A stretch of DNA of 64,000 nucleotides from Planoprotostelium fungivorum (lineage: Eukaryota > Evosea > Variosea > Cavosteliida > Cavosteliaceae): assembly GCA_003024175.1 (NCBI GenBank), contig MDYQ01000041.1:62001-126000 (forward strand), given 5' to 3'. Below are positions 1-46,949 of the stretch, piece after piece; the stretch's first letter is position 1; each line of letters starts with the position of its first letter. The translations under genes were made by a program, and so were the position numbers. The notes beneath the pieces were generated by a model. It was not told where the DNA came from. It made no database searches and saw nothing but the letters and a program-made list of their open reading frames with translations.

Positions 1-184
1 ACTCCTCATTTCAATCGCTCACATTTGGCCCCGTCCAATATTCTCCATTTGACTCTATGATGGATCAGTAAGGAAGGATGAATGAGAGGAAGAGATTACC
101 ATTGAGGGCTGTCCAGATGTTCCGCATCGTTTGCATTTCAACAGCCATGCTGGTTTGGAATACCGAAAGAAAAAAAAGATACAT
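1..184 (-). CDS. LRR receptor, N-terminal fragment (runs off left edge)
   Basis: First two exons of a fourth member of the receptor family that follows. The start ATG is at 184. It opens a hydrophobic signal peptide (MYLFFLSVFQTSMA) followed by the family hallmark MRNIWTALNG, which matches MQNIWTAFNG in the next two genes. Exon 1 ends at 100 and its intron ends at 55. Exon 2 (54-23) encodes EYWTGPN, matching QYWTGSN at the same place in the next gene, and ends at a GTGAG donor. The LRR and later domains lie outside the window, so membrane, GPS and kinase parts are inferred from the paralogues only. Confidence 0.75.
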
Positions 185-707
185 GGATTAACATCCAGAT
201 CAGTCTGATTCGTTGCATCTCCAGGCTGCGTGGCGTGTTTTTGTCGTTTGTAACGATCCCCTCTTCTTCCCCTCGTTCCTAAGAACGTGGATGGGGAGTT
301 ACTTCTCGACATCCTCTCATTCGAAACGTAAACCGCTCACACCTCCAAGGTTGCATGTCTCCCTGCAAGAGATTGAACTACCCAAGACATGGTATCATCT
401 GAGGTTTGAGATGTGATGTGACTAGATATTGAACATAATGATCCCGAGACCTACAGGACTGGATGTGATCTGAGGTCGGTGTCGCGAGATATTCTGGAAC
501 AGAAATAAAACGATTCAATCGAATATATTTATTATCGATCATCTAGGGTGCTCTGTATGACCATAGTACAGATGGACGAAGCCACAGTGTCCGTGAAGGA
601 CGTGTTGAAGAGGAATCGATATTCATCAGTGATGGACGTGAACATGGGAAAGGAAATTGTGTCGTAACGCTGATATGATGAGACAACTTTATTAAAGGCT
701 CCGTGAA
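185..707. other. Intergenic region between receptor genes, with receptor 3' UTR
   Basis: Holds the 5' flank of the left-edge receptor and the 3' UTR of the receptor to the right. A polyadenylation signal AATAAA for the latter reads on the minus strand at 528-533. About 60 bp next to it (535-600) recur in diverged form near 20,875-20,935. No further coding signal seen. Confidence 0.5.
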
Positions 708-3700
708 TCAAACGAACGTGGAACGCGTAAATCTCGAATGCACCGCCATTCTCTTCGTCAATTCCTTCAGGCTCGGCCTCTCTTCTTCTCTCCTCTTCGT
801 ACACTCCGCGATCAGCTCCGCCACTCTCTCATCCATCGTCTCATCCACTGTCAGTATTACTTCTGTCTCTGCTTCTCGCGCTGTCTCGTAGAGATGATGA
901 CTGCCGGTGACCATGGACCACAGGAGCACACCGACGTTATAGACGTGTCCACTGGCTCTGTATCTCTTCTCTTCGATCACTTCGGGTGCCTGATCATCAT
1001 CTTCAGTAGGATCCCGACACGTCGTCCTCACCGTGTAGAAATAGCTCATTTCAGGTGAATGAGGGGAAGATTCTGCGACGATACAAGAGAGGCAGCTTAA
1101 CTTGGCCGTCGTTCCATTCAGAAGAATCTTTCTCTCGGTCAGATTCATCTTATTAAAGATTCTGAAATAGAGAGGTGACGTCACCTTGTTTGGCACGACA
1201 GAAATGTGTACTAAGCCCTGTGATGCAATGTACGACAGTGCATCGCTCACCTTCTGGCATCTGTTTTCACGTCACATCTTCTCTCTTATAATGTATCACA
1301 CACATGCTGAGCATTGCTTCTACTGTAGGTTGAGGCTGAGAAGCGAGGAAATCGTGGAGAGTGCCGTCATTCATCCATTCCATCACGATATATCTTTCTG
1401 TGTATGTTCAGTCTTTCATCCACGTTACAAGTATCTTCAAACGAAGACTGACCTAACAAATTTCGACCGAGATATTGTACGATGTTTGGATGATGCAGTG
1501 TCTGCCTGTGTCACTTTTCCCTCATCCTCTCTGTCATGTCCTCTCACCTTCATCACATCACACTCCTTATCGATGTATATACCTTCGATCAGCTTCTTGA
1601 CAGCCACAACAGTCGTCTCTTTGTATATGCTCTTCCACACTTGTCCTCTCTTTCCTTCCCCTATCATCTTCTCGAATTCGACGCCCTCCGTGTCTACGGT
1701 GGTGAAGAAGAAACCCGTTTCCGTATCATCCTACATATGAATGTCATTGTAGATCATAACCGTTCGACTCACTCTCTTGTATCGATACATCCTACGATAA
1801 ACCAGAAAAGAGACGACGAGAACGAGAGGAAGTCCAATTAGAACGAAGCAGACGGTGATGGCTACGAGCTTCGTCTTGTTGCTGCCTCCTTCGGTCGGTT
1901 GATCGACGACACGTTCCGTGGGTATCAATCTCTGCTGTATGCCGATGGAGAAGTTGGTGAGGTGACTGCACTGACAGATCGTCACGTCTGCATCTACAAC
2001 GAGACTGCAGCCGTCTCTCGACCATAAACTATATGTCTCGTTCCAATACTGACACACTCCTTCTGTTCTCATTGTCAGAGAAAGGAAGAATGAGTGATGA
2101 TCACCATAGCCAGAGGGTATAGATGTGATCGATCCCATTGTGATGTTGATCAACTGATCGACTCCTCTGACATCGATCTCTTTGCCTTCTGTGTACACGC
2201 TGACTCCAATGACTGGACTGTATCTGTTCTTTCTTCAATTGAACGTTCCACATTGAAATATCGATGACTCACATGGTCTCGTTGTAGATGGATTCAAATG
2301 GATCGTACGATATGGATGATAGCGCCACAGAAACTAATTTCATGTTATCATGCTTCTCTTTCGAATTACATCTCTCACCTTGCTGTTGGGAAGAGAAGAC
2401 TGACACAGGAAGCGTGACAGCGATGCTACTGTTTGCAATCTTGTTGTAAACGCTCTCTCTGCCATCTAAGAAGGTGGTGTTGTACGTCTGCAGCTTGACT
2501 GAGACGTCTCGTGTGTTGTACTCGAACGATGTCGTCGACGTGTTGCGTAGCAACGCGAGAACCACGGCAGATATGACTTGTACGATCTATCTACCATCAA
2601 TCATCGCTTTGGCTGAATTCTTCACCTCAACATCTTCGTGGAGCGGACTATCTAATACATTCTGTGATTCCGTCACATCATCTCTCCCTCACATTTCTCT
2701 CACCTTTGCATCTTCCACGGATATCTTTGTGTCGTTATCAAACAGATTTTGTATGACGGAGCTGACGTTTGTACGGTCGATGCCTGTCGTTGTCTGCACA
2801 GATGATGTTTCTGATGATGAGGCGACGGAAGATGAGATGATCGAGGATGAGATGCTGGATGATGATCCGATCGTGCTGGTGGAAGCGGTTGTGGTGGTAC
2901 AAGTGAGGTAAGACACGCTGCCGTTACAGATAGATGATACGTTGAGCGGTGGATAGCACGGGAAGGCATTACCACTGAGTGAACACGTCTTCGTCACGGG
3001 CACGTATCCCACCGATTTCAATTGGTTGTTATTCAGGGAGAGCGTCACAAGACTGGCGAGGCGGTCGTCTCTACCGGGTACGATACCATCCAAAAGATTA
3101 TTCGACAAGTCCAGATCAGTCAGAGCGGGCAGATTCATGATACGTTCGGATACGCTTCCTGACGTGGTTGATCAGCTCCAATGACAAATCATATTCTCCC
3201 ACCGGTGAAACGATTTGAACCGAGATAAATTGTCGTGAGGGAAGTCAGGTTGCCGATGGAGTCGGGGATGGTTCCTTTCAATTGGTTTCCGCTCAGAGTC
3301 ATGTAATTGACTCGCAATAGGTTACCGATCGAATGAGGAATCGATCCGTTCAGTTGATTCGAATTCAAGTAGAGGATCTGCAGAGAAGACAGGCCACCGA
3401 TGGCTTCAGGGATGGTCGTCAGCTGATTGTACCCCAACATGAGGTTCTGAAGGGATTTGAGGTTACCGATGGTGGAGGGGATGGAGCCGCTCAAATGATT
3501 CCCCGTGACATCCAATCGGATGAGAGATGTGAGATTACCGATGGAATCGGGGAGGGAACTGCTCAGTTGATTGTTGTTGAGGGAGAGGTAAGAGAGAGAG
3601 GTGATGTGTCCGATGGTGGTGGGGATGGATCCAGTCAGCTGATTTCCGGCCAAGTTGATGGCGGTGAGATTGATGAGATCTCCGATGGATGGAGAGATGC

Positions 3701-4036
3701 ATCCCACAAGGCCTTTGCTGTTGAGGCTGATCTTGATCGGCCATGTGGAGGTGGCGTCACAAGTCACGCCAGTGTAGTCGGTAGAGTTGCAGATCTGAGA
3801 GGCGTCAGTTCGTGAAATTTTCTCATGATCATCACTCACGTTACTTCCAGTCCAATATTGTGAGGAACCTATCCATAAATGAGACGAAGAGTGGAGATGA
3901 AGAAACCCTCACCGTTGAATGCCGTCCAGATGTTCTGCATCGTTACGAACAGATCGATGGCTTCACCACCCTCAGGCATCACCAATAATAAAGAGAGACA
4001 GAGAAGCGCGCGAAGAAAATGTACGTGGTATTGCAT
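708..4036 (-). CDS. LRR-GAIN/GPS-TM receptor pseudokinase (copy 2)
   Basis: Multi-exon single-pass receptor. Start ATG at 4036, signal peptide, then MQNIWTAFNG. About eight plant-type LRRs (SIGNLTSL...LSGSIP) lie at 3800-3190 and the last LRRs at 3138-3000. A Ser/Thr-rich spacer follows at about 2900-2800. The GAIN domain ends in a GPS motif at about 2062-1950, with CQYWNE, W, GC, CQC and the cleavage-type HLTNF. A membrane helix lies at about 1885-1800. The cytoplasmic kinase fold keeps a glycine loop (IGEGKRGQVW), the beta-3 lysine (VAVKK), LHHPNIVQYLG and APE. The catalytic HRD is replaced by HIS (about 1205), the catalytic-loop Asn by Lys, and DFG by CLS (about 1090). It is therefore predicted to be catalytically inactive. 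Poly(A) signal at 528-533. Ligand unknown. Confidence 0.85.
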
Positions 4037-4858
4037 CGTGAAAGATCGTGATTAGATGAGATGGTTGCAGTGATGTGTTGGTAAAAAAATGAAGAAGGGA
4101 TACCGTGGAGTGTTGGAGCCTTAGATCTATATCGTGTGTACGTTCCTGCCGGAATTACGTCGTTTGGGTGGCCTCAGGGAAGGCTATGTCGTTCGTCGCT
4201 GTGTAGATCTGCCGAAATTCCACAAAATAAAAACAGCGAAGGGGCTTCCAATGGAGCTCCTTTGGACTAATTCATCACGTATCAGAACATGATGTGGAGG
4301 TGTTTTAGATCCTAGCAGAGAGAGAAAGAGTGGTCTTCTACTCTCACGTGATGAAATTTGAAGTGCTGAGTTGTCTCATCGACTCGGAACATTTCTATTG
4401 CTGATCTCCAACGAGTATCATTTAGATCTCTCGATGGTACATCTCAATCCCTTCTTTGTCAATAATTGTATCAACATATAATCTCCCATCTGGCCTGTGA
4501 ACATTTAATACACCTCTGAGTGAGTATGATAGAGATCCGTCGGAGATGTTAATCGATGCACGTTTGATCCGCTTGACAGAAAGAAATGACAAACACAATT
4601 TTCAAAGACAAAATCTCCAGGTGATATCTCATTGATGACCCTCTTGAAGATCCAATATGACATCAGCAATTGTCTTTCCTTTATTTGAAGGAGAGCCGGA
4701 CAATGATAGGGTCATCGTCGATCTTCGATGCTTACTTCCGTGAATGGATGTATGTCAGTGATAATACTACGCAGTAACAATAAACGATATTGATATCGAA
4801 GTCGCTGATCACATCATGTATATGATTCTACGTCATCGTGTTATCATCGAACAGTCGT
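4037..4858. other. Intergenic region between receptor copies 2 and 3
   Basis: AT-balanced sequence between the 5' end of one receptor gene and the 3' end of the next on the same strand. No conserved coding frame, RNA gene or clear repeat was seen. It should contain the copy-2 promoter and the copy-3 3' UTR. Confidence 0.5.
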
Positions 4859-7800
4859 TTAATAAGGCCTCCTTCTCTTCACTGCCAACCTCTCCGTTAC
4901 TTCTTTCAGGCTCGGTCTCTCTTCCATCTTCTTCGTGCAGTCCACGATCAGCCCCGCCGCTCTCGGGTCCATGGTCTGATTGATGATGACTTGCACTTCT
5001 CGATCTGCCTCGTAGAGAGGATGGCTGCCGGTGACCATGGACCACAGGAGCACACCGACGTTATAGACGTGTCCACTGGCTCTGTATCTCTTCTCTTCGA
5101 TCACCTCGGGTGCCTGAGATCATTCAACGTCGAATTCGAAGAGAGTAAGGAGACAGATGTTATATATTGATCATTATTCTTTCTCTATTCGATATGAAAT
5201 TGATTCTCACCGTGCAGAAATAATCCAACTTCGATGGATAAGGAGTAGATTCTGCGACGATACAAGAGAGACCGTTTAACTTGGCCGTCATTCCACTCAG
5301 AAGAATCTGCGTTCATGTTACATTCATCTTTAGAATAAAGAGGCGTCACCTTCTTCGGTACGACGGAAATGTGTACCATGCCCATCGATCCAATGTACGA
5401 TAAACCCTTACTCACTCCTTCACATCTGCATCAAGGTTATCTCTTTGTGTGAACGATACGAACTCACAGGGTGAACGTGGTGTCGATGTTTAATTTGGGA
5501 TGAGAAGAGAGGAAGTCATCAAGGGTGTCGTCATTCATCCATTCCATCACAACATAACGCTCTGTGCAACGGTCAGTTTCTCACTTAAATGATGGAATGT
5601 ATATGAGCGTAAATGATTGAATTATCGTAGGTTCATCACATCATGACTTTCACCTGCTACATGTCGACCGAGATATTGTACGATGTTCGGATGATGCAGT
5701 CCCTGACTCTGTCATTTCTATCTCTTCTCTATCTCTTCTCTATCTCTTCTCTATCTCTTCTCTATCTCTTCTCTATCTCTTCTCTATTTCTTCTCTATCT
5801 CTTCTCTATTTCTTCTTCTCACCTTCATCACATCACACTCTCTGTCTATATCGATGCCTTCGATCAGCTTCTTGACAGCCACCACAGTCGTCTCTTTGTA
5901 TATGCTCTTCCACACTTGTCCTCTCTTTCCTTCCGCTATCTTCTTCTGTAACTCGATGCCTTCCGTATCAGCCAAGATAGTCAAATCCATCTCTGTATCA
6001 TCCTGCTTCACATCAGATAGTACGATACACGGATGTCTCTCACTCTCTTGTATCGATGCACCTTGCGATAGACCAAGAAAGAGACGATCAGAACGAGGAG
6101 AAGTCCTCCCACGACGCAGCAGACGATGATGATGATCAGCTTCGTCTTGTTGCTGGTTGATTCGGGTATCGAGTTGGTGATTGGATCTGTTGATGCTACG
6201 ATGGGTCGAATGCCAACTGAAAAGTTGGTCAAGTGAGTGCACTGACAGACCGTAATTCCTCCGTCTACAACGAGGCTGCAGCCGTCTCTTGACCATAAAC
6301 TATATGTCTCGTTCCAATACTGACACACTCCTTCTGTTCTCATGGTTAGAGAAGATGATGACGTTTATGAGTGATGATCACCATAGCCAGAGGGTATAGA
6401 TGTGATCGATCCCATTGTGATGTTGATCAGCTGATCGACTCCTCTGACATCGATCTCTTTGCCTTGTGCGTACACACTGACTCCAATGACTGGACTGTAT
6501 CTATTCCACCAATGACATTCTAATCAAATCCGAACACTCACATTGTCTTGTTGTAGATGGATTCGAACGGATTGTACGATACGGATGATAATGATACAGA
6601 AACTGTTTTCAAACGTTATTCTCAATCATTCGAATAATAATTTACCTTGCTGCTGTGAAGTAAAAACAGAAGCAGGTAGTGCCACAGCGATGCTGCTGTT
6701 CTCTATCTTGTTTGTCACACTCTTTCCACTGCTCAGCTCTGACGTGTTGTATGTCTGCAGCTTGACTGAGACATCTCGTGTGTTGTACTCGAACGATGTT
6801 GTCGACGTGTTGCGTAGCAAAGCCACTACAACAGCAGATATGACTTGTGCGGTCTGTGTCATCCATCAGTCTCTCTCCTCTCTGCTTCTCTTCACCTCTT
6901 CACGGTTCAAGGTTGTGGCATTCAGGATGTTCTGTTCTCACGTCACACATCATCTCCCTTCACATCACTTTCACCTTTGCATCTGTGACTGATATCTTCG
7001 TGTTGTTATTATACAGACTCTGTATCACCGCGCTGACGTTCGAACCATCGATCACTCTTGTGGAGGGTACCGGAGAAATTGTTGATGTCGAAGGCATCGT
7101 CGATGTGATGATTGTAGATGAGCTACTGGACGATGAACTTGCGGATGTGGTTGTGTAATTGATGCATCCATTGTAGATGGCAGGATCATCACACGTCGAT
7201 GATACGTTGAGGTGTGGTTGACATGGCAACGTGTTCCTCTGCAGAGAGCAAGATACAGTTACGTTGATGTATCCCACGTACGTGAATCGATTGTCGTTCA
7301 GAAACAGACTGACGAGGCCGGGAAGGTCATCTCTTCTCTTTGGTACGACTCCGTTAAATAGATTGTTGGATAAATCAAGATTTGATAAAAGTGGTAGATT
7401 GATCAGTCCATCAGGTACATCTCCTGTTTATCATTTAGACATACGATGGAAGAATAAATCTTTTTCACCAGTCAATTGGTTGCCGCTCAGCTGTATCGAT
7501 TGGAGAGAAGTTAAAAGAGCGATGGAGGGAGGGATGGTTCCGTTCAGCTGATTACCATGGACATCGATCTCGGCGAGCAAAGTCATGTTACCGATAGTGG
7601 AAGGGATGACTCCTCTCAGTTGATTGTCGTACAGTATCAGCTCATTCAGGGAAGAGAGATTACCTATGGTATCTGGAATATTTCCACTCAATTGGTTGCC
7701 AGCGAAATTGAGGTAACTGAGCTTAGACAGACGACCGATGGAGTCAGGGATGGTGCCGGTGAACGAGTCGCTGTACAGGGAGATGAACCGTAGAGAAGAG

Positions 7801-9020
7801 AGGTCCCCTATGGAAGAAGGAATCGATCCGTTGAGTTGTAAATTGCTACCGAGGTCGAGATATTCCAGCGAGGAGAGGTTACTGATGGTGTCAGGGATGG
7901 GTCCGCTCAATTGATTGCTGTGGATCTCGAAATGGATGACGTTGATGAGGTGGCCGATCGTGTCAGGGAGGGGACCGCTCAGTCGATTGGAGTGGACATA
8001 CACGTGTGTGACGTTGGTGAGATTACCGATGGAATCAGGGAGGGGACCGGTCAGTATGTTGGAGTAGAGAGACAGGGACTGAAGTGAACGAAGTTTACCG
8101 ATGGCATCAGGGATGGAACCGTTGAGCTGATTGCCACCGAAATCGAGGCCCGTGAGATGGTGGAGGTTGCCGATGGAGTCAGGGATGACACCGCTCAGTT
8201 GATTTTGGTTGAGAGAAACAGAAGTGAGAGAGGTAAGGTTGCCGATGATGGAAATGGTTCCGTCCAGATCGTTGATCGACAGATCGAGTTCAGTGAGGAG
8301 GGTGAGGTGACTCATGGTATCAGGGATGGGGCCACTCAGGTGATTGTCGTGAAGAGATAGAGTTTGTAGAGAGGTGAGGTTACCGATGGAGTCAGGGATG
8401 GGGCCGGTCAATCCGTTCAAGAAGAGGGAGACGTGAAGCAGGGATGTCATGTTGCCGATGGTGGAAGGGATGGATCCGGTCAATTGATTCTGAGCGAGAT
8501 TGAGATCTGTGAGGAGAGAGAGCATGCCGATGGAATCGGGGATGGATCCACTCAGGTGATTACCAAAGAGAGAGAGTGATTGAAGGGACGAGAGGTCGCC
8601 GATGGAGGGAGGAATGAAACCGGTCAGCTCATTGTTGCCGAGATCTATGGAGGTGAGGTTGATGAGATCTCCGATGGAAGGAGAGATAATGCCAGACAAT
8701 GCTTGATTACTGAGGATGATCTCGATCGGCCAAGAAGATGAAGCGACATCGCAGACCACACCGGTGTAATCACTTGAATTACAGACCTGAAAGATGTCAG
8801 CTCTCATTTCCACATTTCGATCACTCACGTTTGCTCCTTTCCAAAATTGTGACGGTCCTGCATCTCACTTAGTCGAGTGATGTGGTAGAAAGATCTTACC
8901 ATTGAAGGCCGTCCAGATGTTTTGCATTGTCTTGACTAGATCTACAGCCTCAATGCGTTCAGGCATCGATAATACGAGAAATAGACAGAGAAACATGCGG
9001 AAATGTCCAACATGATCCAT
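4859..9020 (-). CDS. LRR-GAIN/GPS-TM receptor pseudokinase (copy 3, long LRR array)
   Basis: Same architecture as the neighbours but with the longest ectodomain. One exon (about 8790-7468) encodes about 17 plant-type LRRs of about 24 residues. Start ATG at 9020: signal peptide, then TMQNIWTAFNG. A run of serines and threonines at about 7150-7080 precedes the GAIN domain. The GPS motif lies at about 6331-6216 (CQYWNE ... CQCTHLTNFS) and the membrane helix at about 6180-6070. The kinase fold has a degraded glycine loop (IAEGKRGQVW) and VAVKK. The catalytic loop reads VHISVVPK (about 5380-5350), followed by ILLSG, and NGLSC stands where DFG should be, so the proton acceptor, metal-binding Asn and metal-binding Asp are all missing. 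The C-terminal lobe (APEV, GVLLWSMVTGSHPLYE, ERPSLKE) is retained. Stop at 4859. Predicted receptor pseudokinase. Confidence 0.87.
5698..5820. repeat. Intronic pyrimidine repeat (CTATCTCTTCT)n
   Basis: About ten tandem copies of an 11-12 bp unit, CTATCTCTTCT, lying inside an intron of receptor copy 3. It is purine-rich on the coding strand. It looks like a simple intronic microsatellite. Confidence 0.8.
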
Positions 9021-9561
9021 CTTTGGAAAGCCACGGTCCTGTGTGCACGAAATGTTCCCAAATCATCGTGTGTGGTTAGTGTCGACATCGTTGGCTTAAA
9101 TCTATATATATGGTTTGTTCTGTCTTCTCCCGTCGATCCTGTTGTTGTGGAAACTTCATTTGAATCACGTGGTCACTGTAGATACGTCAGCCGAGGATTA
9201 GCCAGATCCTATGATCCAGCATGTTGATGAGTCGAACGGAATCGTCCATTCATGGTCTGGTGATATCCTTGGCGATGATGACGTGATGTTGCGCACAGAA
9301 TCAGTAGCACCTGATGTGAACATAATGATTTGTGACTATATGATGGATGATGTTAGCTTCCATAGTTCATCGAAGTGAAAATAAGAGGGCTTATCCCTTC
9401 ACGAATTAAATTTCACGGTAGTGAGTATTTACAGATCGGTAACTACCAGGTCATCGCATAACGACGAACACAATACCATTCCATATCTTTACGAGATCTA
9501 ACGATCTACCATCAGGCTAGAACCGAACGAGGCTTGATTTTTATTTTGTTTGTACGTTCAT
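9021..9561. other. Intergenic region between receptor copies 3 and 4
   Basis: Contains a TATA-like run (TATATATA, about 9103-9112) roughly 85 bp upstream of the copy-3 start, and an AATAAA signal on the minus strand at 9540-9545 for copy 4. Nothing else was recognised. Confidence 0.5.
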
Positions 9562-12500
9562 TCAACATTCATACGTACTGTCTGTGAAAGACCCACTCAC
9601 GACGCGTGGATGTCTCTTGACTCCCAGCCTCTCAGCCAATCGGCTCACATTCAATCTCTCTTCTCTCTCCTTCGTGCAGTCTGTGATCAGCCCCGCCACT
9701 CTCTCATCCATCGTCTCGTTCACCGTCACTCGTAATTCTGTCTCTTCTCCTCTCGCTGTCTCGTAGAGATGATGATTACCGATGACCATGGACCACAGGA
9801 GCACGCCGACGTTATAGACGTGTCCGCTGGCTGTGTATCTCTTCTCTTCGATCACCTCTGGTGCCTGACGATATTCAGTCGAGATCTGATGGTAGTCATC
9901 TCACCGTGTAGAAGGCATCCAACTTGGAGCAGTAAGGAGTTGATTCCGTTACGATACAAGAGAGACAGTTCAATTTGGCCGTCGTTCCATTCAAAAGGAT
10001 CTATTCTACGTCAGATCTACAACATGAAAAGAGTAGATACCTTGCTCGGTGTGACAGAGGTGTGTACCATGCCTTGTGACGTGATGTACGATACTGCTTT
10101 GCTGACTCCTTCGCATCTGATCTTTGTCACAACTTGTAATCATACAGCGGACGACTCACATCAAGAACATCGTCTCTACGGTGAGTGGATGTTGAGAAGA
10201 GAGGAAGTGATGGAGGGTGGCATCGTTCATATATTCCATCATGACGTACCGTTCTGATCGTTGTCTCAATTTGATGTTTCATCGATTTTTGTGATGAACG
10301 CAGAGATGATGACGAAGATGGATGATGGTGTACATCATGTATCGATAACGATGTCATCAGAATAATTGTTTGCACCTGATATGTTTCGACCGAGATATTG
10401 TACGATGTTTGGATGATGCAGTCCCTGCCTCTGTCAACTTTCCTCTCATCCTCTCTCTTTGTCTTCTCACCTTCATCACATCACACTCTCTGTCTATATC
10501 GATGCCTTCGATCAGCTTCTTGACAGCCACGACAGTCGTCTCTTTGTATATGCTCTTCCACACTTGTCCTCTCTTTCCTTTCCCTATCATCTCCTCGAAT
10601 ACGATACCCTCCGTATCGACCACCACAGCCAGACCCAGATGTGCTTCAACCTGAATTCCGATCAATCACCACATCTCTTCATCTCTTCGTTCGAATCGAC
10701 TCACTCTCTTGTATCGATACACCTTGCGATAGGCCAAGAGAGAGACGATCAGAATGAGGAGAAGTCCTCCCACGCTGCAGCAGACTACGATGATGATCAG
10801 CTTCGTCTTGTTGCCGCTGCTGACTTGTGATGGATGGTTGACTGGCTCCGCACCGACGGAAAAGTTGGTCAAGTGGGTGCACTGACAGATCGTTATTCCT
10901 TCGTCTACAACGAGGCTGCAGCCGTCTCTCGACCACATCTTGTGTGTCTCGTTCCAGTACTGACACACTCCTTCTGTTCTCATTGTCAGAATCTCTACAT
11001 CGAGAGAACGTGATATGAAGGATAAGTGATGAATCACCGTAATCATCAGGGAGGGAGACGACACCCATCGTGATGTTGATGAGGTCTTTGACTCCATAGA
11101 CATCGATCTCTTGACTATCTGCATAAACGCTGACCCCGATGACTGGACTGTATCTGTTCTTCCTTCAATCTCTCATTTATCATCTCGATTCTCACATCGT
11201 ATCGTTATTTTCAAATGCGGAGAGATTGTACGGTACTGATAATAATGCCACCGAAACTGTTTTCGATTGAGTCATGTCTTCTCAAATAAGACGAGCATTT
11301 ACCTTGCTGTTGTGATGTAAAATAGGATGTAGGGACATCTACTGCGATGGAACTGTTGTCGAGTTTGAGGTGGATCACTCCTCCACCATTCGAGATGTTA
11401 AACGTCTCGAATTTGACATAAACGTCTCGTGTATGATAATCAAAAGACGTGGTGTTGCGTAGCAACGCCAGAATTACAGCGGATATCACTCGTGCAATCT
11501 GCCTCGCTCAGTCTCTCATTCATCATCTGTCTCTTCTCTCACCTCCGTGTGGTTCTGCTGTACACCATCTAATATATCCTGAATGATCTATCAGTCTGAT
11601 TCCTCTCGACTCTCTCACCTCAGCATCCCGAATCGATATCTTCGTCGCATCATCGTACAACCATTGTACGACATCCAATGTCGACAATCTGTCGACACCG
11701 ACGATCGTATCACTGATCGGTGGACAGTTCAGATAGATCACGGTACGGCTGCAAGCGAGTGACACGTTGAGTGAACGTCCACACGAGAACGAATTATCGT
11801 TCAGCAGACACTTGTTCGTGACCTCTACGTATCCGACAGAAGTGAGAGAGTTGTGATCCAGGAGAAGATCACTGATGATGGAGAGACCGGCTGATCGTGT
11901 TGGCACCGTGCCGTTGAGTTGATTGTTGGATAGATCCAGACGCAGCAAAAGGGGAAGGTCTATGATGGTCTGAATCACACCGCCTAGAAATTTCAGTACC
12001 ATGAGAGAAATTTCAGTACCATGAGAGAAGTGATGAGTCACCCGTCAGCGAATTATTAGACATCTGGATGTCGATTAGAGAAGAGAGGTTGCCGATTTCG
12101 GATGGTAGGAAGCCACTCAGTTGATTCGACTGAAGAAACAGCCGTCTGAGATTTCTCATGTTGCCGATGGAAGGGGGTATGGATCCATTGAATTGGTTTT
12201 CGAACAGGTGCAGCTCTTCCAGATAGACGAGGTCACCTATAGAAGGGGGGATGATGCCGTTCAATTCGTTTCCGTTGAGCACGAGAGAGGTGAGAGACGT
12301 GAGATTACCGATGGAATCAGGGAGGGGACCGATCAATCGATTTCCACCGAGGTCGAGCTTCTTCAGGTTGACAAGTCGGCCGATGGTGTCGGGGATGGTT
12401 CCGGTCAGTTGATTGCCACCGAGATCGATGGAGGTGAGGTTGATGAGATCTCCAATGGAGAGGGGGAGGGAGCCGTTTAAACCTTTTCTGTTGAGGTTGA

Positions 12501-12817
12501 TTTGGATGAGCCAAGAATGAGTAGGATCGCAGGTCACTCCGTCTATCGAGTTACAGATCTAAAAATCCTCAATGTGATTCCATCTCAATCACTCACATTG
12601 ACACCGAGTCCACCCTGTGTCACACCTTTCAACCTTCAGATCAGAAGTACACATATCCGTTGTGAAAGATGATGATAAGAACCACACCATAGAGGTTATT
12701 CAAGATGGTTTGCACCGTCTCGGTGAGCGTCTGGGCCGACAGACTGGGCAAGCCTGCTCCTACGGTCGACAGAAGGATCATCAAACTGAAGAAACGGTAC
12801 CAGGGAGAGACTTGCAT
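9562..12817 (-). CDS. LRR-GAIN/GPS-TM receptor pseudokinase (copy 4)
   Basis: Rightmost member of the tandem family and the most diverged at its N-terminus (MQVSPWYRFFSLMIL signal; VQTILNNLYG in place of MQNIWTAFNG). Start ATG at 12817. Seven or so plant-type LRRs at about 12,520-12,030 continue at about 11,960-11,870. There is no Ser/Thr-rich spacer as long as in copies 2 and 3. The GPS motif is at about 10,972-10,860 (CQYWNE, W, GC, CQCTHLTNFSVG) and the membrane helix at about 10,815-10,725. The kinase fold has IGKGKRGQVW and VAVKK. The catalytic loop reads VHTSVTPSK (about 10,073-10,041) and LNCLSC replaces the DFG segment, so catalysis is predicted lost. The APE region and GVLLWSMVIG are kept. 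Stop at 9562, with AATAAA about 20 bp downstream. Confidence 0.85.
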
Positions 12818-19930: not shown

Positions 19931-20742
19931 ATGAGTACCCCTGCAAACAGCACTGAACAGAAAGTCTGGCTCATCTCTGGTGCCAACCGTGGTATCGGCT
20001 TTGGCTTAGTCAACAATCTCCTCGCAAGATCTGACGTCATCATATATGCTGGAGCCAGAGAGCCAGCCAAGGCTACAGAGCTGCAGAAGCTGGCAGCCGA
20101 GCACAAGAACTTGCACATCGTCAAGCTCACTTCTGGCTCTGTCGAAGAGGCCAAACAAGTGGCAGCCGTCATCGAGAAGGTCAGATGATCGTTTCGTGTG
20201 TCATTAGTCTGACTCTCTTCAAGCAATCTGGCGGTCTTGACTACGTCGTCGCTAACGCTGGTATTGCCAACTTCACCTCTAGACTGGAGGCCGTCACCCT
20301 CGAGGACTTCAACGAACACTTCCAAGTCAACGTAGTCGGCGTCCTCGTTTTATTCCAGGCCACCCTTCCCCTTCTCCTCAAGAGAACGACGAGAGTCTTC
20401 GAGGCCGTCGGCTCGGGCGCGGGCAGCATCACGAACGCTCACCACTTCGTGGCTTTCAACAACGGATCGTACAGCTTATCGAAGGCCGCCCTCAACTATC
20501 TCGTCCGCAGGATATCTGTAGAGCACGCCCAAGACGATCTCATCGCTATCGCGGTACATCCCGGTTTAGTCGAGACGGATTCGTCGAAAGAGTTCTTGAA
20601 GAGACCCGAGGCCGCAGCTTTGAAGAGCGGCGCCATCCAGCCGGATGACAGTGCCAAGGCTCTGTTGGCGATCGCGGACAAGGCGACGAAGGAGACAAGC
20701 GGCAAGTTTTTGAACTACGATGGTACAGAGTTACCCTGGTAA
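19931..20742 (+). CDS. SDR oxidoreductase, CsgA/C-factor-like (copy 1)
   Basis: Two exons split by one intron of about 44 nt after VAAVIEK. The first exon, from ATG 19931, begins MSTPANSTEQKVWLISGAN and carries GANRGIGFGL (TGxxxGxG) and AGAREPAKA. The second has YVVANAG (NNAG-like), VNVVGVLVLFQATLPLL, the catalytic YSLSKAALNYLVRR (YxxxK), VHPGLVETD and the shared end NYDGTELPW. Cytosolic NAD(P)-dependent reductase; substrate unknown. Nearly identical to copies at 21,645 and 32,750, including the intron position and the 5' leader. Its 3' flank holds a fragment resembling a receptor 3' UTR. This copy has ETDSSKE where copies 2 and 3 have ETDMAQK/ETDMSQK. Confidence 0.88.
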
Positions 20743-21644: not shown

Positions 21645-22457
21645 TATGAGTACCCCTGCAAACAGCACTGAACAGAAAGTCTGGCTCATCTCTGGTGCCA
21701 ACCGTGGTATCGGCTTTGGCTTAGTCAACAATCTCCTCGCAAGATCTGACGTCATCATATATGCTGGAGCCAGAGAGCCAGCCAAGGCTACAGAGCTGCA
21801 GAAGCTGGCAGCCGAGCACAAGAACTTGCACATCGTCAAGCTCACTTCTGGCTCTGTCGAAGAGGCCAAAGAAGCAGCAGCCGTCATCGAAAAGGTCAGA
21901 TGATCTTTCCACGTGTCATTAGTCTAACTCTTGTTCAGCGATCTGGCGGCCTCGACTACGTCATCGCCAACGCTGGCATCGCCTACTCCACCTCTAGACT
22001 GGAGGCCGTCACCCTCGAAGACTTCAACGAACACTTCCAAGTCAACGTAGTCGGCGTTCTCGTCTTATTCCAAGCCACCCTTCCCCTTCTCCTCAAGAGA
22101 ACGACGAGAGTCTTCGAGGCGGTCAGCTCGGCCGTGGGCAGCAACACGAACGCTCACCTCTTTGCGGCTTTCAACAACGGATCGTACAGCTTATCGAAGG
22201 CCGCCCTCAACTATCTCGTCCGCAGGATCTCTGTAGAGCACGCCGAGGACGGTCTTGTCGCCTTCACGGTACACCCTGGCTTAGTCGAGACGGACATGGC
22301 TCAGAAATTCTTAGAGAGACCCGAAGCTGCAGCATGGAAGAGCGTTGCCATCAAGCCAGACGACAGCGCCAAGGCTCTGTTGGTTGTCACAGACAAGGCA
22401 ACGAAGGATACGAATGGAAAGTATCTCAACTACGACGGTACAGAGTTACCCTGGTAA
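21645..22457 (+). CDS. SDR oxidoreductase, CsgA/C-factor-like (copy 2)
   Basis: Tandem duplicate of the upstream SDR with the same start (MSTPANSTEQ, ATG 21645), the same single intron after AAVIEK and the same C-terminus (TELPW). GANRGIGFGL, VIANAG and YSLSKAALNYLVRR are intact, so it is predicted functional. The first exon is almost identical to copy 1 while the second exon differs in many residues (ANAGIAYST; SSAVGSNTNAHLF; VVTDKATKD), a pattern suggesting gene conversion of the 5' half. The TAA is embedded in TAATAAA. It converges on the TXNDC15-like gene with only about 70 bp between stops. Confidence 0.88.
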
Positions 22458-36009: not shown

Positions 36010-37373
36010 ATGAGCAGCACTCGCAATTCCAGTCGCTCGGATGGAGGAGTGTCATGGTGTACGATAGAGTCAGATCCGGGTGTCTTCACAGAGCTCATAT
36101 CACAGATCGGAGTTAAAGACGTCCAAGTAGAAGAGACATATGACCTCGATATGTTATTGCAAGATTTCAAGTGAGAAATTCCTCTTCATTCCACCACCTT
36201 AATTCAAACCAGTGCGGTATATGGTTTAGTCTTTCTATTCAAATGGAGGGGAGACAAAGATGACCGGCCGGTAACAGAACACCCAAAACTCTTCTTCGCC
36301 AATCAGGTACTCTTACGTCTTCCATCTTCCACTTACATGATGTTCAGGTCATCAACAATGCCTGCGCCACTCAAGCTATCCTATCCATTTTATTGAACAA
36401 CAAAGATTTAGAGATCGGCCAAGAGCTCACCTCATTTAGAGATTTCGTCCAAGATTTCAACCCCGAGGTACATCATCCACACTCATCCAATCCACCTCCA
36501 TCCAATCATCTCTCGCCTCCTCTCATCTCGTCCGATCATCACTTCCCATCATCATCATCTCCCAATGATCCTCTGAAATCGAAACAGCTGAAAGGAATGG
36601 CCATCGGCAACTGCGAGCTCGTCCGCAACGCTCACAACAGTTTCGCTCGCCCGGAGCCCTTTGTCTTGGGAACAGAAAAGGCAACGAGCGAAGACGAAGC
36701 GGAGGACGTCTATCACTTCATCTCTTACGTCCCCTTCGATGGAGGTGTCTACGAATTAGACGGACTTAAGAAGGGACCGATCTTCCTGGGCTCTATCGCC
36801 GATAAGGAAAACTGGCTCCGCGTGGCCATACCAGTCATCCAGCAGAGAATCGAAAAATACGCAAAGTCCGAGATTCGATTCAATCTGATGAGCATTGTGA
36901 GAGACAAGAGGGTCGACCTGAAGAAAGCCATCGAGCAGCAGCAGTCACAATTGACGCAGATTGACGCGAAGTTGAGCGGAAACAAAGGTAGGAGAGAGTG
37001 ATGGAGAGGGAGGCTGATGATGAAAGATGTGATGGATATCGATTCGGACCTGCCAACTGATGAGAAAGAGCTGAAGGAGAAGAAGGAGAGAGTGGAAGCT
37101 GACATCGAGTCGAACAAGCAGAGACTGCAGGCAGAGGAAGAGAAGTTTGAAAATTGGAAGGTGAGACGATGTGCATGAAACGTCCATCGCATGATCACAT
37201 CATCATGATCGTGTGTGAACATATCGAGTGGAGAGAGAATAACTGACGAGAGACAGACGGAGAACATCAGACGAAAGCACAATTACATTCCCTTCATCGT
37301 CAATTTGTTGAAGATCCTCGCGGATAGAGGGGAGCTGTCCAACTTGATCTCGACGGCACAGAAGACGAGATGA
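36010..37373 (+). CDS. UCHL5: UCHL5/UCH37-type ubiquitin C-terminal hydrolase
   Basis: Peptidase C12 enzyme in about six exons. ATG 36010; [20 protein letters not shown] and LDMLLQDF open the fold. The catalytic Cys lies in [17 protein letters not shown], the His in [12 protein letters not shown] and the Asp in [14 protein letters not shown]. The N-terminal Gln-type oxyanion segment is less clear. A C-terminal helical tail ([12 protein letters not shown], a coiled coil, then [16 protein letters not shown]) matches the ULD-type extension of UCH37, which binds proteasomal RPN13 or INO80. The TGA is fused with the poly(A) signal (TGAATAAA, 37371). All catalytic residues are present. Confidence 0.88.
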
Positions 37374-40897: not shown

Positions 40898-43800
40898 CTA
40901 TTCCATGGCGTAGTGGTCAGAGTTATAGATCTCCTCGTGAGAAGGTCTCCTCTGATTGTTGTTGCTGGAGAGAGTCAGATGAAGATGTGATGATGGTTCG
41001 ATCACCTGGGCTGTGTCTGTCCCGGAACGGTGGTAGAGCTTCTCTTGGCAGCGTCGTCGGAGTAGGAGTAGATGTCCTCCGACTCGACCACTCTGGAGGC
41101 TCTCACACTATCGTCAGAGAAACTGTAGATATCATCCTGTAAAATGTTATCAGTAAAAGACGACATGATGTGAGGATGTAAGATGTGATTCGATGATGTG
41201 ATGTGATGATGTGACGAGGGAGATACGTACGTTGGATCCCTGTGGAGGGGGCTGCACCATGTTCGGTCTAGGGCTGCTGTATGGTCCCGATGCCCTCTGA
41301 ATGGACTTGTCCGAATACGAGTAGATGTCCTCGCTGTCCTTACCCCTGGCATTGAGAGTGATGTCCGCCACGTTAGAGTTGTAGATCTGTTGAGCGCTGA
41401 TGACCTGCACTCGTCAGACATCGTCCACCCTCTCTGACTCACGGCAGAAGCCCTAGCCTTATCGTCGAGGCTGTAGAGGTTGTCGTTGTTGTTGTACAGT
41501 TGATCGGGTGCGGGCTCTTCGATGGGAATGTCTTGAGCGGCGAGAATGTGTTCGTCGAGGGTTCCACGGTTCAACAGGAGCTCGCTCAGTCTTCTGAACA
41601 ATTCCTTGAAGGTGGGTCTGTCCTCGGCCTGGTGGTGCCAGCTGTACACAGTCAGTCTGTACTAAGAGAAGAAGAGAAGAAGGGAGAAGAGAAGAAGAGA
41701 GAAGAGAAGAAGAGAGAAGAGAGAAGAGAAGAAGAGAGAAAGAGAGGAAGAGAGAAGAGAGAAAGAGAGAAAGAGAAGAGACTGACCAAGAGAGCATGAC
41801 AGCGTAGATTTCAGGAGGACAGTCTCTGGGGCAAGGTAGACGGTATCCATTCATGACTTCTCTCGAGGCATCGGCGTTGGTCATGTCAGGGTAGGGAACT
41901 ATTAATGTGAGAAGAGAATAGAAGAGAAGAAGAGAAGAAAAGGAGAGAAGAAGAGAAGAAAAGGAGAGAAGAAGAGAAGAATAGAAGAGAAGAAGAGAAG
42001 AGAAGAAGAGAAGAAAAGGAGAGAAGAAGAGAAGAATAGAAGAGAAGAAGAGAAGAATAGAAGAGAAGAAGAGAAGAAAAGGAGAGAAGAAGAGAAGAAA
42101 AGGAGAGAAGAAAGAAAAGAAGGAGAGACTCACTCTTTCCGTATTCGAAGATCTCCCACATGACGATACCAAAGGCCCACACTGGCATATCATCAGATCC
42201 ATCTCCTCAATGTCCTCCATCCACGACAACACTCACCGTCAGACTTTGAAGTGTACTTTCTGTCTTGCAGAATCTCAGGGGACTAGTGGTGTGAGCACTA
42301 CATCTGATGAGAGAGAGACTCACACTCCATTTGACGGGGAACTTGCTCTTCGTGTCGGTGTCGACGTGGACTTGGTTCTCGGTCTGTCTGGACATACCGA
42401 AATCGGCCACCTTGACGACGTATCTTCTTCCCTCCGATTTGACGAGGAGGTTACGTGCGGCGAGATCTCTGTGGACGATGCCTCTGTCGGCCAGGTAGTT
42501 CATACCCGCCACTGTTCCTTGACACCTAACAGACATTCAGAACAGAGAAGAGAGGAAGAGAGAGAAGAGAGAGAGAAGAGATAGAAAGAGAGAAGAGAAG
42601 AGATAGAAGCAGAGAGAAGAGAAAGACTTACATGACGAGAATATCATCCAAAGTGGGTCTCTCGTTGGGATCTCTGAGAACGGACAAGAGGGAACCCTTG
42701 GACATGAATTCAGAGACCATGTACTGTTCGTTATCCGCGCTGATCCAGATACCCAAGAACTGTGTCACGTTGGGATGCAGCAGCAATTGGAGCATGGCCG
42801 TCTCTTGTTCGAACTCAGCCTTCAGCTCGGGGTTCTGCGTGGCATCGCCAGATAACTTTTTCAGAGCAACCTCCGTCGTACCTATCCTACAATCAGACAT
42901 ACAACAGATTCAAAGTCGTCGTTGGTACGATGAAAGAGAGAGGCTCACCCAAGTATTGACCCTTGTACACGTCACCAAAAGCACCACCACCGATTCTCAT
43001 CAAGATCTGGATGGCATCGGGCTTGATCGGTGCAAAGACACTGGCGGCGTTGTTTCTGTTCATCAGCTCTTCGTCCTCTGCCTTCTTTCTCTTGTACTCC
43101 CTGCTCTTCCTCCTCACGTAGAAGATCGATCCTCCCAGAACGGCTCCAACGAGAACGGCGGCGGCGATGGGCAGGCCGATGTACAATCCCAAGTTCTTCG
43201 AGGATCTGATGTGGTGAGACAATCGACGATGTGATGTCGATGTGATGTCGATGTGATGTCGATGTGATGTCGATGTGATGTCGATGTGATGTCGATGTTG
43301 TCGATGATGTCTTACGTCGTGGTAGGTACGGGGAAGAGAGCGACGGTGAAGTTGGTGAGATGGTTCGTAGTGCAGTTGACCGTTCCATTGATGAGAGTGG
43401 GTTCCAATCCAACAAATACCATACCATCGTTACCCATCACCTGTGTCGAATCGTTCCAGTACAGACACACGAAGGCCATGTTTCCTCCACTGTCGACGCG
43501 TCAACCCACGATGAGTTCGATCCTCTCTGACTCACTTGTATGCGTCGATGATGGTCTGGTTGACGGGAATCTTCACGGTGTAGAGGGCGCTCGTGTCGAA
43601 CGTGTTGTTAGTGCGTGGGGCGATCTTGATCTCTGCGTTGTTCGAATCGTAAAAGTTGAGTCCTACCACGTTCGACAGCATGGTCCTATTCAGGTCAATC
43701 GATTGTTCAGAGTGTGGTCTCACTTTGGAGTGTTGATCTGACCGGGTAGATAAGCGTAGAAGGGGTTGTACTTCCAAGTGTACATAACGGCGTAGGCCTT

Positions 43801-46800
43801 CGTGACGTTTCCGTAGGGGAAAGTGACGTTGGGCAGGGTAAATTCTGCAGAATCGAAGCCGTTGCTGATCTTTGCACTCTTCAACTCGTTGAGGTTGAAC
43901 GAGTTGGAGTAGGCGGACATGGTCGTGCTGTTGTAGCGAGTGCCTCCCTGGCTTTCTGATTTGGGGTCTCTCGCTACCTTCAGCATGATCTGGTTGAGTG
44001 GATCGTAGATGGGACCCAGAGCGGTGAAGAATTGGATGATGTACGAGTTCTTGGCGGGATCGGCCAATTTGACGATGTTGCTCAGGATGTCAAAGACGAT
44101 CTGTCTACGTCAGTCGATGATTTCACCACGATGTCTCACTTTTCCTGTCTTAGGGTCGACGGATTCCGTTCCGTTGATGGCAGCTTCGATGAGAGCCTGT
44201 TCTTCATCAGCTTCTATTCACAGACGATAGACCCACTTGAAGGAGGCTGTTGTCGATCTCGGTGTAGATGGTCGTGTATTGGTTCAACATGACGAAAAAG
44301 TTGTTCGCATAGTTCAATTGGATGGGATCCTCGGAGGAGAATTGAATGAGTCGAGTCAGATTGAGCAGTTCACTGTACAGAGAGTCTCTGTAGCTGTCAC
44401 CGCTGACTGCCTGGCTGATGGATACAAATAGCCACTGCATTCCCAAATCCAATTGTCCGTTGGCGATGTAACTCCTCGACTTGTTCAGGGCCTCTCCCAC
44501 GCTCGTGCTCTGTTGAATCGAAATCCTCTGAAAACGAGTGAGAAGAGTGAAGACGAGACAGACATGACGAACGAGTCACCTCTAAGGTAGCGACAGAAGA
44601 AGAACCGTCCGAATACTGGACGTAAGAGTAGAGGGTGAAATCACCGCTGGGCAGGATGTAGTTCGACACGGGTGAACTTCCGTGAGAAGTAATGAAGATG
44701 TTCTGACCCTCTAGACCGTGGGGAACGTATCCAAACTCGAATTGTACTCCCTTCGTGTTGTCGACTCTCATGCTTCCTTCAGCCGATCCATCGGCAGAGA
44801 AGGTGATGGGTGAGTTGTGAGAAGCCTGGAAGACGTAGGCACCGGTCAGAGTGGAGATGGGTGCGTCTGAGTTGTTGTAGTAGTACACTTGGACGGTCAG
44901 TTTGAACTCGAAGGTGTTCAAGTGTGTCAATTCGGAGAAGGGATCGGCAATGACGAGGATATCATCGTGTCTGTACCATTTCAGTCAGAGTCTCTTACGT
45001 GTCTTGTATGATGTCATTGATGATGTCATCGATATGGATGGTGGTGAGACGACTCACAAGTCTGTGAGTGAGGCACCCTCCAAGATGTTCTCCTCTATCT
45101 GAAGTGAAGACCAAGTGAATTGACAGTAAGAATCATCGCTGTAGCATGCATCTTCCGTGTTGAGTAGGACATCAGCAGACAAGTACAAGATGTCTGTGGT
45201 GATGTCTACGGGATGAGTGGGGTACTGAGAGGGTGAGTGACTCTCTCTCTTCTCTTCTCACCGCATCGAATGACAACTGGTACGGTGTCTCTGTCTCGTT
45301 GACGACGGAGATACCGTATGTGATGTTGTTCGAGATGACCGTGTATGTACCGGGGGTCGTACGAAGGGTCGTCAGTGTGGTCACACCTACCAGGGTGAGC
45401 ATGTGATGAGATGATGAGATGATGAGATGATGAGATGATGAGATGATGAGATGATGAGATGATGAGATGATGAGATGATGAGATGATGAGAAGAGGTGAT
45501 TCAGATGGAAGAGAGGACGAAGCCTACCTCCGTCGTTGTAAATGTGGTCGGGGTTGGTAGAGAAGATGTGGTTGAGGGATACGGTGAGTATACTACCAAA
45601 GGAAAATCGAGCTCTGGGGTTGACGATCTGGATGGTGGGTCCGTTCACACCAGCGAGGGGGGTGACACTCTGAACAAAGGTAACATCGGCGGAATTAGCA
45701 CCCGTGCAAGTGAAGTTCTTGTAGCTGTAAACGAATGAGCCGTTGATCGTTTGGATGCTCTGGGGTCCGGTGTAGACGATGGCGTTGTTACTCCTGGTAG
45801 TAAAGATATTGCCCTGTCTCGGTTCAATTTGAAAGAAGAAATGAAATAAATCTTTCCACTCACGGGAATGACAGTGCCGGGGAAACCAGAAGCACGAGTG
45901 ATGTTGATCGAATAGGGGCTGCCGACTCCGAGTGAGGTAGAGTTCACGGTGATTGGACCTGAATCGTGTCATCAGAGGAGACGATGGAAGAGATGGTACC
46001 TGTGGGATCATAGATGAAGCTCGTATCGAGACTAAGGAGTGACGAGTTGACGCAGCTTGGAACCGCAGGAGAGGTGACGAAATTGTTTTGAACCATCTGA
46101 GAGAGTGAGGAGATGTTTAGAAAGGAGGTCTCACCTGTCCAGGGCCACTCATCAAAACGGCTTGAGATGATGAATTGAGAGCCCAAATGTTTCCATAGTT
46201 GTCGGCCCACCCTTGAGTAAAGTTGACGTGGTTAGAGATCTGTCGGTGCATCAGTGCATGTGAAGATGTTATTCTCTCACAATGGTCTGCCAGAACAGTC
46301 CGTCGAAAGAGAATAAAGTGGTCGTTCCATTCGAGTTGACCAAGGCCCAAGCAGTTCCATTTGCATCCGAAATGGAGATGACTCCTGTCGGCGAACTGGG
46401 GAAGGGGTGTAATTGGGTCCATGCATTCTGAGAGTGATAGAACCTAGAGGAATGAGTGGTTCGTCTCTGTTTTTGACGTACCTGTAACTCTCCGTTCCGT
46501 TGCCTTGGGTCCAAGTGACGAGTAAAACTCCATCTTTCACGTTCCAGAGTCGGGTGTAATTCTTTAGACCTGGTAAGACCAAGTTGCCCAAAGAAGTTCC
46601 ATTGTAATTCAATGTGCCGTTTTTGATAATGTAGACTCCATCGGAGGTCGCGATCGAGTCGTCGGCTACAAAAGAAAGTGTATTGAGGCTTTTTGTCCAG
46701 TAAGTGGTGGGTCCTTTTAGATCCAGCATAATCCTACAAATAATCAGTAATTGAAGAAGCAAAAAATCACCCTTCGTTGGAAAGTGTGAAATTCTGGGTC

Positions 46801-46949
46801 AGATAGTTCCAAAAGCTCGTATCATTAGCACCTAGAGAAGATATCCTATAAAGTGTTCCCTCATACTGCCAATAGTACGGCTCTCCAACGGAGAGAGAGA
46901 TGAGACAAAAGAGGAGGAGGGCACCTCTGAGGGACGAGAGGAGCAGCAT
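40898..46949 (-). CDS. Receptor tyrosine kinase with GAIN/GPS ectodomain and tyrosine-repeat tail
   Basis: About 25 exons. ATG 46949: signal peptide ([19 protein letters not shown]), then a beta-propeller-like N-terminal part (about 46,900-46,150). Next are beta-rich, possibly REJ/PKD-like segments (about 45,950-44,600) and a helical plus beta GAIN domain. The GPS motif (CLYWN ... [11 protein letters not shown]) lies at about 43,465-43,340, followed by a membrane helix (about 43,190-43,120). The kinase is complete: [55 protein letters not shown] and [20 protein letters not shown] and FPVKW are tyrosine-kinase signatures. The tail repeats [29 protein letters not shown] and ends [12 protein letters not shown] (stop 40898). 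It is predicted to be an active transmembrane tyrosine kinase whose ectodomain self-cleaves at HL/T. Ligand unknown. Confidence 0.9.
41660..42130. repeat. Purine-rich intronic repeats (GAAGAGAAGAAGAGA)n
   Basis: Two introns of the receptor tyrosine kinase (about 41,662-41,785 and 41,900-42,130) consist almost wholly of GAAGAG/GAAAAG units on the plus strand, i.e. polypyrimidine in the transcript. A third, shorter run lies at about 42,540-42,625. Confidence 0.85.
43208..43305. repeat. Intronic repeat (GATGTGATGTC)n
   Basis: About seven tandem copies of a roughly 12-bp unit GATGTCGATGTG inside an intron just before the membrane-helix exon. Confidence 0.8.
45403..45490. repeat. Intronic repeat (GATGATGAGAT)n
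   Basis: About eight tandem copies of ATGAGATGATG in an ectodomain intron of the receptor tyrosine kinase. Confidence 0.8.

What the first reader, a model, noticed from the sequence alone, without database searches (positions are those of the whole stretch)
1..12817. Tandem family of LRR-GAIN/GPS-TM-kinase-fold receptors
Seen: in three whole genes plant-type LRRs are followed by a GAIN-like region, a canonical GPS (CQYWNE, W, GC, CQCxHLTNF), one membrane helix and a kinase fold. A fourth gene shares the unusual N-terminus. Known: GPS sites normally occur in adhesion GPCRs and polycystin-1-like proteins. Inference: this is a separate receptor class pairing autoproteolytic ectodomains with kinase folds. 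I do not know a named family with this order.
Basis: partly seen in the sequence, partly recalled or inferred. Interest (0 to 1): 0.87.

Follow-up and report, generated by a model that had tools for sequence, protein, structure and literature searches.

The report
Self-cleaving-type receptors with kinase tails
Three neighbouring genes of an unidentified microbial eukaryote encode single-pass receptors that join leucine-rich repeats and a GPS self-cleavage motif to a kinase fold that lacks its catalytic residues, and a gene nearby joins a related site to a kinase that looks active, a receptor layout for which I found no description.

Summary
Genes A (4036-708), B (9020-4859) and C (12817-9562), minus strand, each read as 14 exons with matching intron phases. 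Each encodes LRRs, a GPS above Pfam's cutoff, one strong TM segment and a tyrosine-kinase-like fold.

Two things were not in the finding. All three kinases are pseudokinases: HRD reads HIS/HIS/HTS, the catalytic-loop Asn is Lys, DFG is missing, the alpha-F Asp is His. They stay under purifying selection (dN/dS 0.30-0.35). And gene E (46949-40898) has another ectodomain, a diverged GPS that keeps HLTNF, one TM and an intact tyrosine kinase. A-C and E share two kinase intron positions.

The GAIN fold outside the GPS is not shown. A 2025 paper names adhesion GPCRs and PKD1-like proteins as the only families known to contain GAIN domains (passage). My reading: a new variant, GPS-bearing single-pass receptor kinases and pseudokinases. 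Cleavage and signalling are inferred.

The parts
708..4036 (-). Gene A, 14 exons, 885 aa: LRR - GPS - TM - pseudokinase
4859..9020 (-). Gene B, 14 exons, 1114 aa, same order with the longest LRR exon
9562..12817 (-). Gene C, 14 exons, 826 aa, same order
1944..2054 (-). Gene A GPS (HLT codons 1964-1956)
6215..6325 (-). Gene B GPS (HLT codons 6235-6227)
10855..10965 (-). Gene C GPS (HLT codons 10875-10867)
2106..2784 (-). Gene A region before the GPS, GAIN-like, fold not shown
6383..7055 (-). Gene B region before the GPS, GAIN-like, fold not shown
11039..11699 (-). Gene C region before the GPS, GAIN-like, fold not shown
1797..1877 (-). Gene A TM segment
6068..6148 (-). Gene B TM segment
10729..10809 (-). 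Gene C TM segment
711..1676 (-). Gene A pseudokinase; HRDLxxxN equivalent HISVVPNK at 1208-1185, DFG region KLSCLS at 1103-1086
4862..5951 (-). Gene B pseudokinase; HISVVPKK at 5373-5350, KLNGLS at 5282-5265
9601..10599 (-). Gene C pseudokinase; HTSVTPSK at 10064-10041, KLNCLS at 9976-9959
1..240 (-). Start of a fourth gene with a similar N-terminal peptide, cut by the window's edge; start codon uncertain
   Evidence: by eye; no tblastn hit at 1e-3
40898..46949 (-). Gene E, 25 exons, 1464 aa: ectodomain without Pfam match, diverged GPS, TM, intact tyrosine kinase, tyrosine-rich tail
43342..43467 (-). Gene E GPS-like segment (HLT codons 43362-43354)
   Evidence: below Pfam cutoff
43115..43195 (-). 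Gene E TM segment
41542..43012 (-). Gene E tyrosine kinase; HRDLAARN at 42473-42450, DFG at 42404
40901..41565 (-). Gene E C-terminal tail of 164 aa with 11 tyrosines

Best explanation
These are single-pass cell-surface receptors of a GPS-TM-kinase class. In A, B and C an LRR ectodomain is followed by a GPS (and probably a short GAIN domain), one TM helix and a pseudokinase derived from a tyrosine kinase. Most likely (inferred) the protein cleaves itself at HL|T during folding and reaches the surface as an LRR-bearing N-terminal fragment held non-covalently on a membrane fragment. Ligand binding or pulling on the LRR part loosens or removes it; the membrane fragment then changes its pairing, and the pseudokinase acts as allosteric partner or scaffold for an active tyrosine kinase such as that of gene E. 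Shown: domain order, intact GPS residues, loss of catalytic residues, purifying selection on the pseudokinase, a relative with an intact kinase in the same window. Inferred: GAIN fold, cleavage, force or ligand sensing, pairing with E. My odds: anatomy about 0.95, cleavage about 0.65, the full mechanism about 0.35; the score below is for the explanation as a whole.
For: Gene models with 13 of 13 intron phases shared. Pfam LRR, GPS and kinase in 3 of 3. All 14 PDB sequences matched at E up to 1 by the GPS-region profile are adhesion GPCRs, best 8.4e-6. HLTNF kept in 4 of 4 genes although E is 26% identical to A in that region. E's GPS segment: hhalign probability 89.9, E 1.7e-6, score 47.7 against at most 25.6 in 200 shuffles; tblastn of E onto C, B, A 7.8e-6, 2.1e-5, 0.001. 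Catalytic residues lost in 3 of 3. Kinase dN/dS 0.30-0.35 with bootstrap upper limits 0.43-0.49; GPS-region 0.24-0.25 with upper limits 0.35-0.38. E kinase intact. Two introns shared in position and phase by the A-C and E kinases, of 5 and 6; chance 0.0005 under uniform random placement.
Against: No transcript, expression or cleavage data. The GAIN fold outside the GPS is unsupported: the profile without GPS finds no GAIN protein; the fragment model has mean pLDDT 47 and is confident only in the TM helix; E without its GPS scores 14.4 against A-C, below the best of 200 shuffles, 21.8. No Pfam GAIN model was listed. E's GPS is 9.2 bits against a cutoff of 22.5 and keeps 2 of 4 cysteines. The dN/dS of the short TM segment between B and C is 2.46 (36 codons, interval 0.63-4.73, very low dS), and dS of the LRR part is saturated (1.6-2.0). 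Nothing shows that A-C and E interact.
Confidence: 0.5

Rival explanations
1. Uncleaved structural module: the GPS/GAIN-like part is a spacer and the receptors work as ordinary ligand-paired LRR receptors with pseudokinase tails.
For: No cleavage shown; GAIN fold unproven; with one TM there is no 7TM pocket for a tethered agonist.
Against: HLT kept in 4 of 4 genes including the diverged E; four GPS cysteines kept in A-C; dN/dS 0.24-0.25 across the region.
Confidence: 0.3
2. Decaying gene copies: the kinases are dead because the whole cluster is on its way to pseudogenes.
For: Four catalytic positions lost; tandem copies.
Against: Three intact reading frames; kinase dN/dS 0.30-0.35, limits below 0.5; the same losses in all three, so the loss is older than the duplications or was spread by conversion.
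Confidence: 0.06
3. Gene-model artefact: LRR-GPS-TM and kinase belong to separate genes joined wrongly by hand.
For: Splice sites were chosen by hand and there are no transcripts.
Against: Exon 8 to exon 9 is bridged by introns of 42, 41 and 54 nt with the same phase in three genes, and retention adds a stop in 3 of 3; in E the TM and the kinase N-lobe are in one exon.
Confidence: 0.03
4. GPS resemblance without a GAIN domain: a convergent or detached Cys-rich juxtamembrane motif.
For: All significant similarity sits in the GPS segment.
Against: GPS score about 17-20 bits over Pfam's cutoff; weak continuation upstream onto ADGRL3 (from profile position 119, E 1.4e-4) and BAI3 (from 70, E 0.013).
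Confidence: 0.12

Closest known systems
Adhesion GPCRs (ADGRF1, ADGRL3, BAI3 and others)
   Same: GPS sequence with CxxWN, W, GC, CxCxHLT; large ectodomain
   Different: One TM and a kinase fold in place of the 7TM domain
Polycystin-1 / PKD1-like proteins
   Same: The only other family named as containing GAIN domains (PMC11697300, passages)
   Different: 11 TM helices in polycystin-1 (abstract of PMC9672506 in the listing) against one here; no REJ or other PKD1 domain found by Pfam in E
LRR receptor-like kinases, plant and protist
   Same: LRR - TM - kinase order; such proteins are reported from Amoebozoa (PMC13091385, passages)
   Different: A GPS between LRR and TM; the 60 listed of 110 PDB matches are all tyrosine kinases; catalytic residues missing in A-C. 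'GPS' and 'pseudokinase' do not occur in that paper's main text
Receptor tyrosine kinases of unicellular eukaryotes
   Same: Gene E: one TM, intact tyrosine kinase, tyrosine-rich tail; TM tyrosine kinases are reported in Acanthamoeba and Physarum (PMC4053784, PMC4758236, passages)
   Different: GPS before the TM; 'GPS' does not occur in the main text of those two papers
GPCR-kinase fusions of amoebozoans, oomycetes and choanoflagellates
   Same: Receptor and kinase in one chain (PMC12716839, passages)
   Different: 7TM receptors; the paper puts the GAIN-7TM module in holozoans only (section 11), and no GAIN was found in family 2 GPCRs of Amoebozoa (PMC10445921, passages)

Membership tests
GPS/GAIN proteins | GPS motif above Pfam cutoff | tested here: met
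   A, B, C: 39.5, 39.4, 42.5 bits against 22.5. Not met by E: 9.2 bits
GPS/GAIN proteins | HL|T/S cleavage triad | tested here: met
   HLT in 4 of 4 genes; triad as given in PMC11697300
GPS/GAIN proteins | Four GPS cysteines (two disulfides: recalled) | tested here: met
   4 of 4 in A, B, C; E keeps 2 of 4
GPS/GAIN proteins | GAIN subdomain B sandwich and 2-6 helices of subdomain A | tested here: inconclusive
   Weak extension upstream of the GPS; no hit without GPS; fragment model pLDDT 47; no GAIN model among the Pfam hits
GPS/GAIN proteins | Autoproteolysis | not testable with these tools
   Needs expressed protein
Adhesion GPCR | 7TM domain | tested here: not met
   One strong TM segment in A, B, C and E; no 7TM family in Pfam
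PKD1-like protein | Many TM helices, REJ | tested here: not met
LRR receptor-like kinase, architecture | LRR, TM, kinase fold in that order | tested here: met
   A, B, C; LRRNT_2 cap only 12.9 bits against 20.7 (gene A)
LRR receptor-like kinase, kinase group | Kinase of the RLK/Pelle group | tested here: inconclusive
   60 of 60 shown (of 110) PDB matches are tyrosine kinases; no tree with RLKs built
Catalytically active protein kinase (A-C) | HRD Asp, catalytic-loop Asn, DFG | tested here: not met
   Absent in 3 of 3
Pseudokinase (A-C) | Kinase fold without catalytic residues, kept by selection | tested here: met
   lack of activity itself not tested
Receptor tyrosine kinase (E) | Hydrophobic N-terminus, one TM, tyrosine kinase with intact motifs | tested here: met
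   tyrosine specificity judged only from HRDLAARN and the matches

The most novel reading that the evidence does not exclude
A separate receptor class in which a GAIN/GPS cleavage module controls single-pass tyrosine kinases: the cleaved strand that is a tethered agonist in adhesion GPCRs here governs pairing between active kinase receptors (gene E) and LRR-bearing pseudokinase co-receptors (A-C), so GAIN signalling would exist without any GPCR.
Probability: 0.3. Interest if true: 0.87.

Novelty: new variant of a known kind. Interest (0 to 1): 0.72.

Why it matters
GAIN domains are studied almost wholly as parts of adhesion GPCRs and polycystin-1, where the cleaved strand acts on a multi-pass domain. 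A single-pass receptor with the same cleavage motif and a kinase tail would separate the two roles of the module, two-fragment assembly and tethered agonism, and allow each to be tested alone. It would also show an autoproteolytic receptor kinase, with pseudokinase and active branches, outside animals.

Tried and rejected
Whole-genome search for GPS: no genome is held for this window. Relatives of the GPS region in viral contigs and prokaryote genomes: 70 and 15 pattern matches, none confirmed by tblastn, as expected for a eukaryote. AlphaFold2 on the contiguous stretch 2222-1773 (150 aa, single sequence): mean pLDDT 47, only the TM helix confident, so no fold search was run on it. Profile without GPS against PDB: two antibody chains at E 0.43 and 0.48 only. 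E's ectodomain and pre-GPS region against PDB and Pfam: nothing convincing; I first thought of a REJ region in E, and Pfam does not support it. Pseudogene reading rejected by dN/dS and intact frames. Organism: not determined; Planoprotostelium came to mind only from recall and was not tested. Paper searches: 10 of 10 used; in the listings I saw no description of LRR-GPS-TM-kinase or GPS-TM-tyrosine kinase proteins. Four returned no paper or one, so absence from print is weakly tested; most subscription papers are not held.

Full report
Anatomy. On the minus strand three genes, A (4036-708), B (9020-4859) and C (12817-9562), read through 14 exons each. I set splice sites by hand as GT-AG; the phases agree at 13 of 13 positions in all three genes, and retaining the intron breaks the frame or adds a stop for 33 of 39 introns, with every position forced in at least one gene. 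The encoded proteins have 885, 1114 and 826 residues.

Domains. Pfam finds LRR families, GPS (39.5, 39.4, 42.5 bits; cutoff 22.5) and a protein kinase domain in 3 of 3. GPS and TM lie in one exon in each. A hydropathy scan gives one strong TM segment per protein, plus a marginal one in A; the N-terminus passes the threshold in C but not in A or B. The N-terminal LRR cap of A scores below Pfam's cutoff (LRRNT_2 12.9 against 20.7 bits).

Is there a GAIN domain? A profile of the region matches 14 PDB sequences at E up to 1, all adhesion GPCRs, best 8.4e-6; most matches cover the GPS, with extension upstream on ADGRL3 (profile 119-200, 1.4e-4) and BAI3 (70-203, 0.013). Without the GPS there is no GAIN hit. 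The single fragment that could be folded was of low confidence. [quoted passage not shown]

The kinases of A-C are pseudokinases. Against the intact gene E kinase, HRD is HIS, HIS, HTS; the catalytic Asn is Lys; a ten-column gap removes DFG; and the alpha-F Asp is His, in 3 of 3. The VAVKK lysine and the alpha-C Glu are invariant; the glycine loop reads GEGKRG, AEGKRG, GKGKRG. Its closest PDB sequences are tyrosine kinases (60 of 60 shown, 110 matched). dN/dS is 0.34, 0.30 and 0.35 with bootstrap limits 0.21-0.49, so the domain is kept by selection. Against this stands only the short TM segment, where B-C dS is 0.04 and dN/dS 2.46 with a wide interval, probably gene conversion.

Gene E. At 46949-40898 a 25-exon gene encodes 1464 residues: an ectodomain without Pfam match, a GPS-like segment, TM, a tyrosine kinase (PF07714, 2.7e-83) with HRDLAARN and DFG, and a 164-residue tail with 11 tyrosines. 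Its GPS is under Pfam's cutoff (9.2 bits) and keeps two of four cysteines, but HLTNF is intact. hhalign to A-C gives 89.9%, score 47.7 against at most 25.6 for 200 shuffles; without the GPS the score falls to 14.4, within the shuffles. tblastn of this region onto the window finds C, B and A (7.8e-6, 2.1e-5, 0.001). The A-C and E kinases are about 25% identical (61 of 241 for A) and share 2 intron positions with phase, of 5 and 6, chance 0.0005 under uniform placement. In E the TM and the kinase N-lobe are in one exon, which complements the GPS-TM exon of A-C.

Mechanism. Cleavage at HL|T into two fragments, LRR-mediated sensing, and a pseudokinase that works through an active partner are my best explanation, by analogy with adhesion GPCRs and with known receptor pseudokinases (recalled). 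No step of signalling is shown. After cleavage the new N-terminus would start TNFS(I/V)G in A-C and TNFTVA in E, 27, 27, 20 and 17 residues before the TM; with no 7TM pocket, a tethered-agonist action of the adhesion GPCR kind is unlikely, and a change in pairing or shedding more likely.

Known or new. [quoted passage not shown] PMC12716839 (section 11 and passages) places the GAIN-7TM module in holozoans only and says GAIN occurs in other genes elsewhere. PMC10445921 (passages) found no GAIN in family 2 GPCRs of Amoebozoa. Ten paper searches showed me, in their listings, no description of this layout. I therefore call it a new variant of a known kind; sequence databases may hold unremarked relatives that I could not search.

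Limits. The organism is not identified; no transcript data or eukaryote collection was available; tyrosine specificity, cleavage and pairing are untested.

Noticed in passing
window 40898-46949 (-): Gene E: GPS-like segment, TM and intact tyrosine kinase with 11 tail tyrosines, several in repeated acidic DIYS-type motifs, two followed by Asn (YNNN, YNSN).
   Followed up: yes
window 1773-2272, 5990-6500, 10700-11160 (-): Signs of gene conversion between copies: exon 7 of A and B 97% identical, intron 7 of A and C 90%, TM segment of B and C with dS 0.04.
   Followed up: partly
window 165-245 (-): In the fourth gene's start the upstream ATG is out of frame with the conserved peptide across a run of eight T; sequencing error, another start or real change cannot be told.
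   Followed up: no
window 11984-12041 (-): Intron 3 of gene C holds a short direct duplication.
   Followed up: no
window 41642-42631 (-): Introns 17, 20 and 21 of gene E are long arrays of TTCTC-type pyrimidine repeats.
   Followed up: no
window 20035-20742 and 21750-22457 (+): Two near-identical short-chain dehydrogenase reading frames in tandem.
   Followed up: no
window 49250-50026 (-) and 36264-37001 (+): Actin-family gene (resembles Arp2 by eye) and a ubiquitin C-terminal hydrolase, ordinary eukaryotic neighbours.
   Followed up: no
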